Assembly: GCA_020349885.1 (NCBI GenBank)
Contig: CP070701.1
Span: 378,986 to 413,296, forward strand
Origin: Acidobacteriota bacterium
Lineage (GTDB): Bacteria > Acidobacteriota > G020349885
DNA: 34,311 nt
Direction: 5' to 3'
A program made the position numbers and the translations under genes. Below the pieces are notes generated by a model, which was not told the origin of the DNA, ran no database searches, and saw nothing but the letters and a program-made list of their open reading frames with translations. This document shows positions 22,804 to 34,311 of the stretch, piece after piece. Numbering within the stretch: position 1 is the stretch's first letter; the number at the start of each line of letters is the position of its first letter.

Positions 22804-24042
22804 TTATTCCCTCGCTTCGGCCCGTTCGAGAATTTCCACAACCTCCGCGTGGCCATATTTTGCCGCATACATCGAGGCGGTCGCGCCTTCCGAGGTCTTC
22901 GCGTTCACGTCCGCTCCCGCATCCATCAGAGCTTTTACCGTCTCGATATGGCCTCCTGCTGCCGCGAACATCAAGGCGGTCGTGCCTTTTTCGGTCTCCG
23001 CGTTCACGTCCGCTCCCGCGTCAAGCAGGGCTTTTGCCGTCTCGGTGCGGCCATAGCGCGCCGCTTTCATCAAGGCGGTCCAGCCGTATTCGTTCTTCGC
23101 GTTCACGTCCGCGCCTTTATTAAGCAGTTGCTTCACTTTGGCGGTTCCACCCGCCTTCGCCGCTTCGAGCAGGTCTGAATTGATGCCGACCTTCGCTTCA
23201 GCCTTCTTTGGCTGGACTGAATCGTCGTAGGCCTTCGCTTCAGCCTTTTTGAGGAGCTTTACAATCTTCTTGTTGCTCCCCCGTCGGCCACCCTGCGACG
23301 CAAGCATCAAGGCGCTCATGCCGTATTTGTTCTCTTTCGCGCCCATGTCCGCGCCCGCGTCAAGCAGGACCTTCACCGTCCCGGTGTGCCCCGTCACAGC
23401 CGCGGCCATCAGAGCGGTCCAGCCGGTAATGTCCCTCGCGTTCACGTCCGCACCCGCGTCAATCAAGACCTTCACCATCTCGGGTCTCTCCTTTGCCCGG
23501 AAAGCCACCCACTTGGTCCCTACAATTCTGCCCGCGTTGATAACAAAGGCCTTCATTGCCTCACCAGGATCACACATCCATGCCCCGACCATCAGGACGG
23601 TCACGCCGTCTCCTCTCTTCACGTTCACGTCCGCTCCCGCGTCAAGCAGGACCTTTACCGTCTCCGTGTAGCCCCAAGATACCGCAGTCATCAGGGCCGT
23701 TACGCCGTTATCGGTCTCCGCGTTCACGTCCGCACCCGAAGCAACGAGGGCCTTCACCGTCTCCGTATGGCCTTTGGATGCCGCAAACATCAAGGCGGTC
23801 GTGCCGTCTTCTTCCCCCGCGTTCACGTCCGCGCCTTGTTCAAGCAATTCTTCCACTTCGGCGGCGTCACCCGCCTTCGCCGCTTCGAGCAGGTCAGAAT
23901 TAATATCTCCGAAAGCCGCCTGCGCGAAAAGCAGCGGGAGCAAGAGCACGGAAGAAGAACGTAGGACGTAGGACGACAGGACGTAGGCTTCCTTCACTCC
24001 ACGTCCTGCATCATGCTTAAGGGAGGATTCAGTATTTATCAT
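22804..24042 (-). CDS. Exported ankyrin-repeat protein
   Basis: The protein has 412 residues. The ATG at 24042 is chosen because GGAAGGG lies about 7 bases upstream; a longer start at 24096 adds 18 basic residues with no such site. Residues 1-45 form a long signal: a 29-residue n-region, then SVLLLPLLFAQAAFG. After that come 33-residue ankyrin units (for example GTTALMFAASKGHTETVKAL VASGADVN). The central units are degenerate (FVINAGRIVGTKWVAFRAKE). The block starting INSDLLEAAKAG occurs twice, once at the start of the mature protein and once after a KKAEAK linker, so the protein is an internal duplication. A periplasmic or extracellular binding role is likely; the partner is unknown. Confidence 0.88.
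   Translation of the reverse strand: MINTESSLKHDAGRGVKEAYVLSSYVLRSSSVLLLPLLFAQAAFGDINSDLLEAAKAGDAAEVEELLEQGADVNAGEEDGTTALMFAASKGHTETVKALVASGADVNAETDNGVTALMTAVSWGYTETVKVLLDAGADVNVKRGDGVTVLMVGAWMCDPGEAMKAFVINAGRIVGTKWVAFRAKERPEMVKVLIDAGADVNARDITGWTALMAAAVTGHTGTVKVLLDAGADMGAKENKYGMSALMLASQGGRRGSNKKIVKLLKKAEAKAYDDSVQPKKAEAKVGINSDLLEAAKAGGTAKVKQLLNKGADVNAKNEYGWTALMKAARYGRTETAKALLDAGADVNAETEKGTTALMFAAAGGHIETVKALMDAGADVNAKTSEGATASMYAAKYGHAEVVEILERAEARE
23959..23987. repeat. ACGTAGG microsatellite inside the ankyrin gene
   Basis: Three ACGTAGG words (23959-23965, 23966-23972, 23981-23987) and a related ACGACAGG between them encode YVLSSYVLRS in the n-region of the signal peptide. This region is unusual for a signal and may be an expanded repeat that moved into the reading frame. 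Confidence 0.6.
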
Positions 24043-24165
24043 CTCTTGACCCTTCCTTTGCCGGGTCGTTGAAGCCGTCCTGGCGATCTTCACCAAGGGA
24101 ACGTTTTCCGGGCCGCACCCGGCTTTCGCGCGCGTCCCTGGCCGCCCCGCGAGCCTCAGTCCCGC

Positions 24166-29088: not shown

Positions 29089-32000
29089 CTACGGCCCGCC
29101 GCAGCCGCTTCCGAAGTTCGTGATCAGCCTGTCCAAGTCGTCGCCGTTGACTACGTCGTTGTTGTCAAGGTCGACATCGTTCAGGAAATCGCTTTCTCCG
29201 CATTCGGAGCCGAACGAGCGCGCAAGGCGCATCAAATCGAGGCCGTCCGTGCAGCCGTTGCCGTCCGAATCTCCCCAGGCGGATAACGGCGCGGTGCTGC
29301 AGCTCGGCCCGACGCCGCCGGGCAAGGAAGTAGGCAACTGTGTATCCGTGTCGCTGTTGGGATAATAGATGGCGACCTCGCGGGTGGCGAGGTTATTTCC
29401 CGATATTCCTCCCCACACGAGCATGGCCGGTTGGCCTCCTATATCGTCGACCGCGAGGGCCGTGTGGAAAGCGGTCGGCATAGGCGCGTTGGCAGTGGAG
29501 ATTTCGTACCAGGCTGCTCCATTGTAGCGCCCGCCATCGTTGAGGTAATCGGTGAGCGAGCAGGGAGTAAGAGCAAATGGGTTCGAGCATCCAAAGCCGC
29601 CCCAGACAATCATCACCGCCGGAGGTGTATTGGTGACGTTCGGAACCCACACCGCCGTGTGGCCGAAGCGCCCGCCCAAGGTCCAACTTAAGGAAGTCCA
29701 AGAGTCGCCCACGGGATCGTAGAGCCCGCCATCGCCATGGTAAAAGCCGCTTCCGTAACGGCCACCGAAGATAATCATATCGCTTCCAGTCCACACGGCC
29801 GTGTGGTCGCTCCGCGGGGAAGGAGCGTCCACTGATGAGACAGAGGCCCACGAATCCTCGTCTATTTGTCCGTCCCCGTCGTTGTCTACACCATCGGTAC
29901 AGTCGGTTTCGTCGCAGAGGTCGTAGCGTCCGCCGTCACCTTTGAACCACCAGAACGGCCAGTCCTCGTAGCCGCCCCAGACAATCATATAGGGCGTGAG
30001 AAGCCCCTCCGTCCAGACGGCCGTATGACCAAAGCGCGGGGAGGGTAAATCCGGGTCGACCACGTTGACGGGAGCCCACGTCGTAGGAGCAGAGTATACC
30101 GCGCCGCTTTGGAGTGCCGTGTCCGCCCAGGCATCATAGCCGCCCCAGGCAATCATTTCCGCGCCCGTCCAGACGGCCGTGTGGCGGAGACGCGGGGACC
30201 ATCCCACAAACAGGTGAGCGCTCGAGAGCTTCGCATAATTATTTGCGTCATCCGTGGCAAAACAACCAGCTTTTTCGGAAAGGCGAACTTGGTAGGTGCC
30301 CGGCTCCTGGTAGGACGCCGTAACGTCGTAAGGATTGAGGTCCGGAACGCCAAAAGGCTTCAGGACAGTCACCGTGCCACCGGGGGCAACCAATGCGACT
30401 TCCGTGCACTGCGTCAAAAGCGTGTTCCCCCCAAGCGTATAACAGAGCGTGGCCACGGTGGTGCGGCGGGTCGTAAGCGTAGCGTCCACAAGCTCCGCCT
30501 GCGCGCCGAAAGTCTCGCTCAGCTTAACCTGATAGACGCCCTTACCTCCGGTGATGTACTCCGCCGTCACGTCGTAGGGGCTTGCATCCGCGTCTCCGTA
30601 ATCTTTTATCGTGGTCTCAGCACCCGAGGGGTTAATAAGTATCACCTCGGTGTTGGCCGCCACGTCGGCCGCGCTCCTCACGTCAAAGACTGCGCCTGCC
30701 TCAATGGTGGCAACGTCGGCCGCGGCGCAATTCTCGCGGAGCCGCAACGAATAGTCGCCGGGGCCCGCTAGGTACAGCCCCGTCATGCTGTACTCGCTCT
30801 CGTCTGTGAAGCCGTCCCCGTCGTCGTCCACATCGTTGGTGCAATCGGTTTCGTCTATTTGGCCGTCCCCGTCGTTGTCGACACCGTCGGTGCAATCGAA
30901 CTCGTCTATGAGGCCGTCCCCGTCGTTGTCAAGGCTCTCGTCTGTGAGGCCGTCCCCGTCGTCGTCCACACCGTTGGTGCAATCGAACTCGTCTATGAAG
31001 CCGTCCAAGTCGTTGTCCAAACCGTCGACGCAATTGGCCTCGTCCGTGGAGCCGTCCCCGTCGTCGTCCACACCGTTGGTGCAATCGAATTCGTCTATGA
31101 AGGTGTCCCCGTCGTCGTCCACGCCGTTGATACAATCACCAATGTCATCGGCCGTTCCCAAAATGCCGTCTGGGCCTGGATCGATGTCGGCACACTCGTC
31201 ACAGTCGGCACAGTCGTCGCACATAAAGGTGCAATCGACTTCGTCTGTGAAGCCGTCAAAGTCGTCGTCCGCGCCGTTGGTGCAATCGAACTCGTCTACG
31301 AGGGTGTCCCCGTCGTTGTCCACACCGTCGTCACAAATGGCAACGTCATCGCCCGTTCCTAGAATGCCGTCTGGGCCTGGATCGATGTCAGCACAGTCGT
31401 CGCAGTCGTCGCAGTCGGCACAGTCGCTGCAGCCGTCATCGCCGAAGTCCTTGAGAAGATTCGCCACGCCGTTCGGATCAACGACCCTCACCTCCGTGCA
31501 TCCCTTTACGTCCGTATCGTGGCGAAGCGTGTACGTCACGACGACCGAGGAGGCCGGCGAGCCGATTCTGAACGGGCCCAGCGGATCAACCACAAAGGGC
31601 ATGTCGTCACAGGGCTCGTCTATGAGGCCGTCCCCGTCGTCGTCAACCCCGTTGGTGCAAGCGTCGGGGGAGAACCCATCCGCACAATTACCCACGGTCA
31701 TCGACACACTGTCTCGCGTCGTTCCGGTCTCGTGATGGACGAGCTCCTGCCAATTGAGCGTGGCGGTGCCGACGTTCGACGGGTCCATGTTAAAGGCCGG
31801 GACGAAGTCGGCCTTCTCCGAGTCGATCTCGTCTATCAGGCCGTCCCTGTCGTCGTCAATGCCCTCGTCTATGAGGCCGTTCCCGTTGTCGTCAAGCCCG
31901 TTGAGGCAATCGACCTCGTCTATATCTCCGTCCCCGTCGTCGTCAATCCCGTTGGTGCAATCGCCGATGTCGTCGGCCGTTCCCAGAATGCCGTCTGGGC

Positions 32001-34311
32001 CTGGATCGATGTCGGCACAGTCGCCGCAGTCAATGCCCTCGTCTATTTCTCCGTCCCCGTCGTCGTCAATCCCGTTGGTGCAATCGACCTCGTCCACGAA
32101 GGTGTCCCCGTCGTCGTCCAGGTTGTTGGTGCAATCGCCGATGTCGTCGGCCGTTCCCAGAATGCCGTCTGGGCCTGGATCGATGTCGGCACAGTCGCCG
32201 CATAAGTAGCCGCAGCCCTCGTCTATGTAGCCGTTCCCGTTGTTGTCGATCCCGTCGATGCAATTGGTTTCGTCTACGAGGGTGTCCCCGTCGTCGTCAA
32301 TCCCGTTGGTGCAATCGGTCTCGTCTATGAGGCCGTCCCAGTCATCGTCACAACCGTTGGTGCAATCGAACTCGTCTGTGAAGGCGTCCTTGTCGTTGTT
32401 CACACCGTCGGTGCAATCGGCTTCGTCTATTGTGCCGTCGCTGTCGTCGTCCACACCGTTGCAGCAATCGAACTCGTCCCTGACGCCGTCCCCGTCGTCG
32501 TCGAGGTTGTTGGCGCAATCGACCTCGTCTATGAGGCCGTTCCCGTTGTTGTCCAAACCGTCGTCGCAATAGGCTTCGTCTGTGAGGCCGTCGCTGTCGT
32601 CGTCAATCCCGTTGGTGCAAACGAACTCGTCTATGAAGCCGTCGTTGTCATTGTCCAAACCGTCGGTGCAATTGACCTCGTTTATGAAGCCGTCCTTGTC
32701 GTTGTCAACGCCCTCATCTATGAGGCCGTTCCCGTTGTCGTCAAGCCCGTTGGTGCAATTGACCTCGTCTGTGGAACCGTCACCGTCGTTGTCCACACCG
32801 TCGGTGCAATTGGCTTCGTCTGTGAAGCCGTCCCCGTCGTCGTCCACACCGTTGGTGCAATCGAACTCGTCTATGAGGCCGTTCCCGTTGTTGTCAAGGC
32901 TCTCGTCCGTGAGGCCGTCCCCGTCGTCGTCCAAACCGTTGGTGCAATCGAACTCGTCTATGGAGCCGTTCCCGTTGTTGTCTAAACCGTCGGTGCAATC
33001 GACCTCGTCTATGAAGGTGTCCCCGTCGTCGTCCACACCGTTGGTACAATCGGCTTCGTCTATGAAGGTATCCCCGTCGTCGTCCACGCCGTTGATACAA
33101 TCACCAATGTCATCGGGCGTTCCTAGAATGCCGTCTGGACCTGGATCAATGTCGGCACAGTCATCACAGTCGGCGCAGTCGTCGCACACAAAGGTGCAAT
33201 CGGCAAAGTCATCGCCCGTTCCCAAAATGCCGTCTGGGCCTGGGTCGATGTCGGCACAGTCGTCACAGTCGGCACAGTCGCCGCAGTCGATGCAAATGGC
33301 TTCGTCTATGAGACCGTTCCCGTTGTTGTCAATCCCGTCGTCGCAATCGACCTCGTCTATGAAGGTGTCCCCGTCGTTGTCCACGCCGTCGGTGCAATTG
33401 GCTTCGTCTGTGAAGCCGTCCCCGTCGTCGTCACAATCGTTGATGCAATCGAACTCGTCTATGAAGGTGTCCCCGTCATTGTCCACACCGTCGGTGCAAT
33501 TGGCTTCGTCTGTGGAGCCGTCCCCGTCATCGTCACAACCGTTGCAGCAATCGAACTCGTCTATGAAGGTGTCCCCGTCGTTGTCCACACCGTCGGTGCA
33601 ATCGGCTTCGTCTATGGAGCCGTCGCTGTCGTCGTCAACACCGTTGCAGCAATCGAACTCGTCTATGAAGCCGTCATTGTCGTTGTCCACACCGTCGGTG
33701 CAATCGACCTCGTCTATGAGGGTGTCTTTGTCGTTGTCCACACCGTCGACGCAATTGGCTTCGTCTATGAAGATGCCCCCGATGCCGTCCCCGTCGTCGT
33801 CCACACCGTTGGTGCAATCGACCTCGTCTATGAGGGTGTCCCCGTCGTTGTCCACACCGTCGTCGCAATCGACCTCGTCTATGAAGTCGTCCCCGTCGTT
33901 GTCAATCCCGTCGGTGCAATCGGCTTCGTCTATGAAGCCGTCATTGTCGTTGTCCACACCGTCGGTGCAATCGGCTTCGTCTATATCGCCGTCGCTGTCG
34001 TCGTCCAGGTCGTTGACGCAATCGAACTCGTCTATCACGCCGTTATTGTTGTTGTCCAAACCGTCGCCGCAATCGACCTCGTCTATGAGGCCGTCGCTGT
34101 CGTCGTCCAAACCGTTGGTGCAATCGACCTCGTCTGTCATGGTGTCGTTGTCGTTGTCCAAACCGTCGTCGCAATTAACTTCGTCTATGGAGCCGTCCCC
34201 GTCGTCGTCCACACCGTTGGTGCAATCGAACTCGTCTATGAGGCCGTTCCCGTTGTTGTCAAGGCTCTCGTCCGTGAGGCCGTCCCCGTCGTCGTCCAAA
34301 CCGTTGGTGCA
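29089..34311 (-). CDS. Giant secreted protein: TSP3-like Asp/Asn repeats, Kelch-like propeller, dockerin-like end (N-terminus outside window)
   Basis: 1740 residues are in the window and the frame is still open at 34311; the codon at 34299 is TTG within a repeat (CTNGLDDDGDG), not a start. From the N-side: an array of 17-residue units, C-x-[ND]-G-[VLI]-D-[DN]-x-G-x-x-x-[IT]-D-E-x-[DN] (34311 to about 31822), broken by CxxC-rich modules ending DIDPGPDGILGT. Then three related beta-sandwich domains with TEVxLVxPxG...LKxFG...YQVRLSE (about 31821 to 30215), five Kelch-like blades with HTAVW and MIVWGG (about 30213 to 29366), and a dockerin-like pair of calcium loops (GDSDGNGCTDGLDL; DLDNNDVVNGDDLDRL) to the stop. 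The 17-residue units resemble thrombospondin type 3 calcium repeats but have one Cys each. Calcium binding outside the cell is likely; the role may be adhesion or matrix. Confidence 0.9.
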   Translation of the reverse strand, partial: CTNGLDDDGDGLTDESLDNNGNGLIDEFDCTNGVDDDGDGSIDEVNCDDGLDNDNDTMTDEVDCTNGLDDDSDGLIDEVDCGDGLDNNNNGVIDEFDCVNDLDDDSDGDIDEADCTDGVDNDNDGFIDEADCTDGIDNDGDDFIDEVDCDDGVDNDGDTLIDEVDCTNGVDDDGDGIGGIFIDEANCVDGVDNDKDTLIDEVDCTDGVDNDNDGFIDEFDCCNGVDDDSDGSIDEADCTDGVDNDGDTFIDEFDCCNGCDDDGDGSTDEANCTDGVDNDGDTFIDEFDCINDCDDDGDGFTDEANCTDGVDNDGDTFIDEVDCDDGIDNNGNGLIDEAICIDCGDCADCDDCADIDPGPDGILGTGDDFADCTFVCDDCADCDDCADIDPGPDGILGTPDDIGDCINGVDDDGDTFIDEADCTNGVDDDGDTFIDEVDCTDGLDNNGNGSIDEFDCTNGLDDDGDGLTDESLDNNGNGLIDEFDCTNGVDDDGDGFTDEANCTDGVDNDGDGSTDEVNCTNGLDDNGNGLIDEGVDNDKDGFINEVNCTDGLDNDNDGFIDEFVCTNGIDDDSDGLTDEAYCDDGLDNNGNGLIDEVDCANNLDDDGDGVRDEFDCCNGVDDDSDGTIDEADCTDGVNNDKDAFTDEFDCTNGCDDDWDGLIDETDCTNGIDDDGDTLVDETNCIDGIDNNGNGYIDEGCGYLCGDCADIDPGPDGILGTADDIGDCTNNLDDDGDTFVDEVDCTNGIDDDGDGEIDEGIDCGDCADIDPGPDGILGTADDIGDCTNGIDDDGDGDIDEVDCLNGLDDNGNGLIDEGIDDDRDGLIDEIDSEKADFVPAFNMDPSNVGTATLNWQELVHHETGTTRDSVSMTVGNCADGFSPDACTNGVDDDGDGLIDEPCDDMPFVVDPLGPFRIGSPASSVVVTYTLRHDTDVKGCTEVRVVDPNGVANLLKDFGDDGCSDCADCDDCDDCADIDPGPDGILGTGDDVAICDDGVDNDGDTLVDEFDCTNGADDDFDGFTDEVDCTFMCDDCADCDECADIDPGPDGILGTADDIGDCINGVDDDGDTFIDEFDCTNGVDDDGDGSTDEANCVDGLDNDLDGFIDEFDCTNGVDDDGDGLTDESLDNDGDGLIDEFDCTDGVDNDGDGQIDETDCTNDVDDDGDGFTDESEYSMTGLYLAGPGDYSLRLRENCAAADVATIEAGAVFDVRSAADVAANTEVILINPSGAETTIKDYGDADASPYDVTAEYITGGKGVYQVKLSETFGAQAELVDATLTTRRTTVATLCYTLGGNTLLTQCTEVALVAPGGTVTVLKPFGVPDLNPYDVTASYQEPGTYQVRLSEKAGCFATDDANNYAKLSSAHLFVGWSPRLRHTAVWTGAEMIAWGGYDAWADTALQSGAVYSAPTTWAPVNVVDPDLPSPRFGHTAVWTEGLLTPYMIVWGGYEDWPFWWFKGDGGRYDLCDETDCTDGVDNDGDGQIDEDSWASVSSVDAPSPRSDHTAVWTGSDMIIFGGRYGSGFYHGDGGLYDPVGDSWTSLSWTLGGRFGHTAVWVPNVTNTPPAVMIVWGGFGCSNPFALTPCSLTDYLNDGGRYNGAAWYEISTANAPMPTAFHTALAVDDIGGQPAMLVWGGISGNNLATREVAIYYPNSDTDTQLPTSLPGGVGPSCSTAPLSAWGDSDGNGCTDGLDLMRLARSFGSECGESDFLNDVDLDNNDVVNGDDLDRLITNFGSGCGGP
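29857..29916 (-). repeat. Single TSP3-like unit within a Kelch-like blade
   Basis: About 20 codons (CDETDCTDGVDNDGDGQIDE) interrupt the blade between GGRYDL and DSWASVSS. The next blade reads GGLYDPVGDSWTSLS without interruption, which shows where the extra piece starts and ends. Confidence 0.75.
30793..31431 (-). repeat. Block of eight 17-residue units and two CxxC modules inside a beta-sandwich domain
   Basis: The block runs from CSDCADC to TDESE. On either side, KDFGDDG and YSMTGLYLAGPGDYSLRLREN together align to the unbroken neighbours KDYGDADASPYDVTAEY...VYQVKLSE and KPFGVPDLNPYDVTASY...TYQVRLSE. The block therefore sits in a loop of the first such domain. Confidence 0.7.
31612..31659 (-). 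repeat. Single TSP3-like unit within a beta-sandwich region
   Basis: CTNGVDDDGDGLIDEP (16 codons) lies between NCADGFSPDA and CDDMPFVVDPLGPF, neither of which belongs to the repeat family. Confidence 0.65.
31822..34311 (-). repeat. Array of 51-bp coding units (17 residues), TSP3-like
   Basis: Thirty-nine complete units lie here, with four shortened ones lacking the Cys-x-x-G start (for example LDNNGNGLIDEFD). Ten more occur further along the gene (49 complete in all). One unit (near 33770-33826) carries four extra residues (IGGI). The array continues past the window edge. Third codon bases are nearly uniform, which suggests recent expansion. Confidence 0.9.

What the first reader, a model, noticed from the sequence alone, without database searches (positions are those of the whole stretch)
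29857..34311. Two strict Asp/Asn pairing rules in 49 tandem 17-residue units
Number each unit C1-x2-x3-G4-x5-D6-x7-x8-x9-x10-G11. I read every complete unit by eye. Rule 1: positions 3 and 7 are always opposite, either N3/D7 (CTNGVDDDGDG, 28 units) or D3/N7 (CTDGVDNDGDG, 21 units), with no exception in 49. Rule 2: positions 8 and 10 are always the same, D/D in 42 and N/N in 7 (for example DNNGNG), and also in the five shortened units. Each unit so carries two binary states. Known: Asp/Asn in TSP3 and EF-type loops bind calcium. The pairing may keep the loop charge constant between contacting residues. A simpler view is that two or three unit lineages were copied without mixing.
Basis: seen in the sequence. 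Interest (0 to 1): 0.82.

Follow-up and report, generated by a model that had tools for sequence, protein, structure and literature searches.

The report
One-acid rule at a calcium site
In a calcium-binding protein repeat shared by bacteria, archaea and the animal adhesion protein teneurin, two residues that very probably grip the same calcium ion almost always come as one aspartate plus one asparagine, in either order, and switch together in evolution; the window's 49-unit array is a clean example.

Summary
The counts are exactly right: 49 units, N3/D7 28 and D3/N7 21; D8/D10 42 and N8/N10 7. The two rules have different fates.

Rule 1 is real and family-wide. In 1,938 motifs from 40 genomes, N/D = 871, D/N = 914, D/D = 147, N/N = 6 (about 416 N/N expected). 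It is the strongest coupling of any position pair and extends beyond Asp/Asn (N3 with Glu7; D3 with Gln, Ser, Gly, Thr). In 23 homologous pairs where x3 switched, x7 switched the opposite way in 20, the wrong way in none. So the "lineages copied without mixing" view fails.

Rule 2 is local: D8/N10 and N8/D10 units are common elsewhere and occur in three paralogues of this genome.

The repeat is known (NCBIfam NF033662). Its solved relative is the human teneurin-4 C-rich domain (7PLP), where x3 (D840) and x7 (N844) are both calcium ligands, spaced as in the LDL-receptor class A site. Best explanation: x3 and x7 share one calcium ion, and one Asp plus one Asn is favoured. I found no prior description of the pairing in the papers searched. 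D/D is tolerated in some Myxococcota: strong, not absolute.

The parts
29089..34311 (-). ORF, 1740 codons, 5' end cut off by an assembly gap: repeat array, interspersed cassettes, kelch-like domain, dockerin-like C-terminus
33292..34311 (-). first block of the array (residues 1-340), mostly regular 17-residue units, one with a 4-residue insertion, one shortened unit
32209..33099 (-). second block of the array (residues 405-701), 17-residue units and two shortened units
31822..32133 (-). four further units (residues 727-830) with one cassette between them and one shortened unit
31609..31659 (-). single unit CTNGVDDDGDGLIDEPC (residue 885)
30790..31335 (-). last block of units (residues 993-1174) with one cassette and one shortened unit
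29851..29901 (-). isolated unit CTDGVDNDGDGQIDEDS inside the kelch-like region (residue 1471)
31144..33240 (-). six cassettes CADIDPGPDGILGTxDD, exact matches to the PERCAL calcium-binding consensus (33208-33240, 33109-33141, 32143-32175, 31969-32001, 31345-31377, 31144-31176)
   Evidence: consensus from PMC3396595
29392..30183 (-). kelch-like beta-propeller region
   Evidence: Pfam PF24681 1.8e-18
29092..29289 (-). dockerin-like C-terminal segment
   Evidence: PDB 2y3n_B, 2.8e-4

Best explanation
The array is a compact tandem form of the NF033662 acidic double-disulfide repeat, a secreted calcium-binding module. In each unit positions 6, 8, 10, 14 and 17 form a thrombospondin-type-3-like DxDxDGxxDxxD loop. 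Positions 3 and 7, an acid just upstream of Cys1, and the backbone carbonyls just before Cys1 and at position 5 form a second calcium site like that of LDL-receptor class A modules. Residues 3 and 7 are both side-chain ligands of that one ion. One carboxylate plus one neutral amide is favoured in either order: two amides bind too weakly, and two carboxylates over-charge the site or repel. Single changes at 3 or 7 are mostly removed by selection or compensated at the other position. Shown: family match, ligand roles of the homologous residues in teneurin-4, coevolution. Inferred: that both bind the same ion, that the window units fold the same way, and that charge balance is the cause.
For: NF033662 hit 1e-64. 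PDB 7PLP (teneurin-4 C-rich domain) found by sequence at 7e-7 and by a bacterial profile at 4e-9, with only teneurins hit; teneurin fragment hits NF033662 at 5e-10. Published ligands include both D840 (= x3) and N844 (= x7), and one of three ions is LDL-receptor-A-like (PMC9058538); the ligand spacing A837 backbone, D840, K842 backbone, N844 equals the class A pattern i, i+3, i+5, i+7 (class A pattern from own knowledge). AlphaFold2 model of a bacterial N3/D7 repeat, pLDDT 82, best PDB match 7PLP, TM 0.73. Coupling: N/N 6, N/D 871, D/N 914, D/D 147 in 40 genomes, odds ratio 0.001; strongest of all position pairs; compensating switch in 20 of 23 homologous pairs, 0 in the wrong direction. Charge equivalents: N3 with E7 (11 units), D3 with Q, S, G, T, A (16 units) but N3 with such residues once. 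47 of 49 window units have an acid at one of the three residues before Cys1.
Against: D/D is 8% overall and up to 27% in one Myxococcota genome, so charge is not fixed absolutely. Loss of upstream Glu in D/D units is seen in the MopE-like type (133/154 against 20/60 for Glu two before Cys) but an Asp one residue earlier usually replaces it, the D/D loci were chosen and cluster in few genomes, and the Cys1 type shows no overall difference. The few N/N units have no extra acid. The text of the structure paper does not say which ion D840 and N844 bind. The 17-residue window units lack Cys15 and Cys20, and AlphaFold2 gave no confident model of the array itself.
Confidence: 0.78

Rival explanations
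1. Two or three unit lineages were copied in this array without mixing; rule 1 is only shared descent.
For: The units are tandem copies, and classes often recur in similar contexts; 102-base double units are visible.
Against: The same exclusion holds in 40 other genomes with both classes in 30 of 34 informative ones, in homologous positions that switched class, and in the MopE-like type. In the window, units 306 and 422 are of opposite class but otherwise differ by two synonymous bases. It remains the best reading of rule 2.
Confidence: 0.03
2. Residues 3 and 7 touch by an Asn-Asp side-chain hydrogen bond that holds the turn, and metal charge is secondary.
For: Either order works and D/D is disfavoured, as expected for a donor-acceptor pair. 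Compatible with both residues sitting at one ion.
Against: An Asn-Asn pair could also hydrogen bond, yet N/N is by far the rarest (6 against about 416 expected). D3 pairs with Gly or Ala at 7 occur, which cannot bond. The homologous residues are metal ligands.
Confidence: 0.12
3. The rule comes from a DNA-level process such as gene conversion tracts or mutation bias between AAY and GAY codons.
For: Asn and Asp codons differ by one transition, and D/D is commoner in GC-rich Myxococcota genomes.
Against: It holds with both codon spellings, in Bacteroidota and Myxococcota alike, and extends to Glu, Gln, Ser and Thr, which need other codons.
Confidence: 0.02
4. Positions 3 and 7 bind different calcium ions, and the coupling acts through the net charge of the whole cluster rather than through one shared ion.
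For: Teneurin-4 packs three ions into under 40 residues with bridging carboxylates; D/D units often sit in an altered upstream acid context.
Confidence: 0.1

Closest known systems
NCBIfam NF033662 acid_disulf_rpt (acidic double-disulfide repeat)
   Same: Significant hit (1e-64, 24 stretches); same CxxGxDxDxDGxxD core; the family as a whole obeys rule 1
   Different: The window's units are 17 residues long with one Cys each, without Cys15, Cys20 and Cys26 of the typical member; most single units score below the curated cut-off on their own
Teneurin C-rich calcium domain (PDB 7PLP, human teneurin-4)
   Same: Same motif and calcium ligand positions, D3/N7 class; bacterial Cys 1, 15, 20, 26 match two of its three disulfides; AlphaFold2 model of a bacterial repeat superposes (TM 0.73)
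   Different: Single domain in an animal adhesion protein, three disulfides; the window has a tandem array with one Cys per unit
Pfam PF11617 Cu-binding_MopE (MopE-like motif CxGxDxDCDG)
   Same: Same x3-G-x5-D6-x7-[DN]8-x9-[DN]10-G core and the same x3/x7 exclusion
   Different: Cys at positions 2 and 9 instead of 1; the window ORF does not hit PF11617
Thrombospondin type 3 repeat
   Same: DxDxDGxxDxxD loop at positions 6-17; two of the three teneurin-4 ions are TSP3-like (PMC9058538)
   Different: No TSP3 Pfam hit; the x3/x7 site lies outside the TSP3 motif
LDL-receptor class A calcium site
   Same: Spacing of backbone and side-chain ligands around x3 and x7; the third teneurin-4 ion is class-A-like (PMC9058538)
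   Different: No class A sequence match; there the two positions are usually both Asp (own knowledge, not tested)

Membership tests
NF033662 acid_disulf_rpt | Profile match of the protein above the curated cut-off (41 bits) | tested here: met
   213.8 bits, 1.1e-64
NF033662 acid_disulf_rpt | Two disulfides per repeat (Cys 1-20 and 15-26) | tested here: not met
   The 17-residue window units have Cys1 only; typical members have Cys15 54%, Cys20 78%, Cys26 39%. The protein passes the family cut-off, so it is filed as a compact, divergent member with this feature missing
NF033662 acid_disulf_rpt | Calcium binding | not testable with these tools
   Inferred from ligand positions conserved with 7PLP
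Teneurin C-rich calcium domain fold | All calcium side-chain ligand positions present (x3, D6, x7, D8, D10, D14, D17, upstream acid) | tested here: met
   Units; an acid within three residues before Cys1 in 47 of 49 units
Teneurin C-rich calcium domain fold | Same three-dimensional fold | tested here: inconclusive
   Met for a bacterial NF033662 repeat; no confident model for the window array
PF11617 Cu-binding_MopE | Pfam profile match | tested here: not met
   No hit for the window ORF
Thrombospondin type 3 repeat | DxDxDGxxDxxD motif | tested here: met
   Most units, positions 6-17
Thrombospondin type 3 repeat | Pfam TSP3 profile match | tested here: not met
   No hit
PERCAL calcium motif (cassettes between units) | Consensus G-x-D-G-x-x-[GN]-[TN]-x-D-D | tested here: met
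   Six exact matches, consensus from PMC3396595

The most novel reading that the evidence does not exclude
The two interchangeable states (N3/D7 and D3/N7) differ in calcium affinity or geometry, and their order along the array (25 of 35 directly adjacent pairs are of opposite class) tunes the calcium response or stiffness of the chain, so the array carries a functional two-state pattern.
Probability: 0.07. Interest if true: 0.8.

Novelty: new member of a known kind. Interest (0 to 1): 0.58.

Why it matters
A two-residue rule this strict (odds ratio about 0.001 over nearly two thousand motifs), at residues with a 1.5 A structural counterpart, gives a clean natural test of how tightly a calcium site must balance its charge, and of compensated double mutations. 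It also ties a little-studied bacterial repeat family to the teneurin C-rich domain, which its authors described as resembling no known domain fold as a whole, and so gives that family a structure.

Tried and rejected
AlphaFold2 on an eight-unit stretch of the array gave no confident model (pLDDT 37). A tree of 51-base units has too little signal: at least 23 class changes on the best tree, but only one supported independent pair. The prediction that D/D units lack the upstream acid was only partly borne out and is confounded by a few genomes. Rule 2 as a family rule was rejected. Rule 1 as clonal descent was rejected. Pfam alone gave only kelch-like domains for this ORF. The shortened units, in which Glu15 of the preceding unit takes the place of x3, have Asn7 in 4 of 5 cases: suggestive, too few to use. 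Paper searches for a prior description of the pairing or of NF033662 found none, but the library holds open-licence papers only.

Full report
OBSERVATION. The repeat lies on the minus strand in an ORF of 1740 codons (29089-34311) that is open at the window end because a run of N follows in the assembly; the array is truncated there. The genome is held as one 2.4 Mb sequence and carries paralogous units at several other loci.

SAME GENOME. Across the array and its paralogues rule 1 holds in 109 of 110 units (70 N/D, 39 D/N); the exception is D/S, which still has one acid. Rule 2 fails in three paralogous units (CTNGVDDNGDG, CTDGVDNDWNG, CNDGIDNNGDG).

OTHER GENOMES. The codon RAY encodes exactly Asn or Asp, so a DNA pattern with RAY at positions 3, 7, 8 and 10 samples all combinations without bias. 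With positions 3 and 7 left free, 110 motifs listed from the window's own phylum gave D/N 76, N/D 14, D/D 3, N/N 0, with single cases of D/T, D/G, D/Q, D/S and N/E; the rest look like unrelated calcium loops. Complete counts over 40 genomes, without requiring Cys, gave N/N 6, N/D 871, D/N 914, D/D 147; 416 N/N are expected from the margins, and the Mantel-Haenszel odds ratio stratified by genome is about 0.001, with both classes present in 30 of 34 informative genomes. The MopE-like type with Cys at 2 and 9 obeys it as well.

NOT DESCENT. Among homologous proteins from different loci, each locus used once and loci chosen for D/D or N/N left out, 23 pairs differ at x3 between Asn and Asp. In 20 of them x7 differs in the compensating direction (19 N/D against D/N, one N/E against D/N), in 3 it does not change, in none does it go the wrong way. 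One pair (L115, L180) aligns over 707 flanking residues at 53% identity. Some pairs lie within repeat arrays, so strict orthology is not certain for all. In the window, opposite-class units 306 and 422 differ outside codons 3 and 7 by two synonymous bases. Of all position pairs, 3-7 carries the most mutual information above shuffles (0.83 bits in the Cys1 type, 0.75 in the Cys2 type), 8-10 only 0.04 and 0.18.

WHAT IT IS. NCBIfam NF033662, acidic double-disulfide repeat, hits the ORF at 1e-64. Searching the PDB with a consensus-like bacterial repeat pair or with a 34-sequence profile finds teneurins, best the 1.5 A C-rich domain of human teneurin-4, 7PLP (7e-7 and 4e-9). The teneurin fragment in turn matches NF033662 (5e-10, 38.8 bits for a 27-residue fragment, cut-off 41), and the bacterial Cys positions 1, 15, 20 and 26 fall on teneurin disulfides C838-C857 and C852-C863. 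AlphaFold2 without templates models an N3/D7 bacterial repeat at pLDDT 82, and its best PDB match is 7PLP (TM 0.73, rmsd 1.8; the Foldseek E-value is only 0.13 because the domain is tiny). So both classes appear to share one fold. The window units are a compact form with one Cys per unit; how their Cys pair is not known.

MECHANISM. Meijer et al. (PMC9058538) list as side-chain ligands E835, D840, D843, D845, D847, D851, D854, D856 and N844, and as backbone ligands A837, K842 and L849; two ions are TSP3-like and one LDL-receptor-A-like. In unit numbering x3 = D840, D6 = D843, x7 = N844, D8 = D845, D10 = D847, D14 = D851, D17 = D854, and E835 is the residue three before Cys1, the place of Glu15 of the preceding unit here. 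The class A site uses backbone i, Asp i+3, backbone i+5, Asp i+7 (own knowledge), which falls exactly on A837, D840, K842 and N844; hence x3 and x7 very probably bind the same ion. This is an inference, as the text does not name the ion for each residue. A pair with exactly one acid then fits a site that needs a set charge; the equivalents N3/E7 and D3/Q, S, G, T agree. D/D is tolerated at 8% overall and up to 27% in one genome, N/N at 0.3%, so too little charge is worse than too much. The predicted loss of the upstream Glu in D/D units is seen in the MopE-like type (133 of 154 against 20 of 60), but those loci were chosen and cluster in few genomes, an Asp one residue earlier often takes its place, and the Cys1 type shows no overall difference. 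Charge balance is likely but unproven.

RULE 2. Positions 8 and 10 are ligands of the DxDxDG loop. In the window they always match, but the family does not need it; copying of a few N8/N10 subtypes (for example near-identical units 519 and 802) explains the local pattern.

CONTEXT. The ORF also holds six exact matches to the PERCAL calcium consensus, a kelch-like propeller and a dockerin-like end. A secreted, calcium-rich surface or matrix protein is the likely role (inference).

VERDICT. The count is right. Rule 1 is a genuine family-wide compensated pair with a structural basis, rule 2 is local. The family and its calcium fold are known; the pairing rule was not found described in the papers I could search, which is a limited library.

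Noticed in passing
window end 34311 (genome position 413297 onward): The array is cut by a run of about 100 N in the assembly, and the sequence beyond is a transporter gene in another frame and on the other strand; the true array length and the start of the gene are unknown.
   Followed up: partly
31144-33240, minus strand: Six cassettes CADIDPGPDGILGTxDD, exact PERCAL calcium motifs, often preceded by runs of Cys-x-Asp triplets such as CDDCADCDDC, sit between the 17-residue units.
   Followed up: partly
33343-33549 region (residues 255-323) and residue 616-650: Several units carry an extra Cys at position 2 or 5 (CCNG, CNGC, CINDC); all are of the N3/D7 class and most alternate with D3/N7 units.
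   Followed up: no
PDB 7PLP and bacterial loci such as L083, L178: The teneurin C-rich calcium domain matches the bacterial NF033662 repeat in sequence, Cys positions and predicted fold, which suggests a common origin or exchange between bacteria and animals.
   Followed up: partly
MopE-like motifs in Myxococcota genomes (L220, L230, L236, L251, L260): D3/D7 units of the Cys2 type often have Asp three residues before Cys (DxxC) instead of Glu two before it (ExC): a possible three-way coupling.
   Followed up: partly
L221, L222, L273, L274: A small family of N3/N7 units (CxNGKDNDCDGxID, always Lys at position 5 and no acid before Cys) accounts for most of the rare N/N cases.
   Followed up: no
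14-559: A 156-base tandem repeat with 3.5 copies at the other end of the window.
   Followed up: no
22804-24096, minus strand: Ankyrin-repeat protein of 430 residues with 99-base tandem DNA repeats.
   Followed up: no
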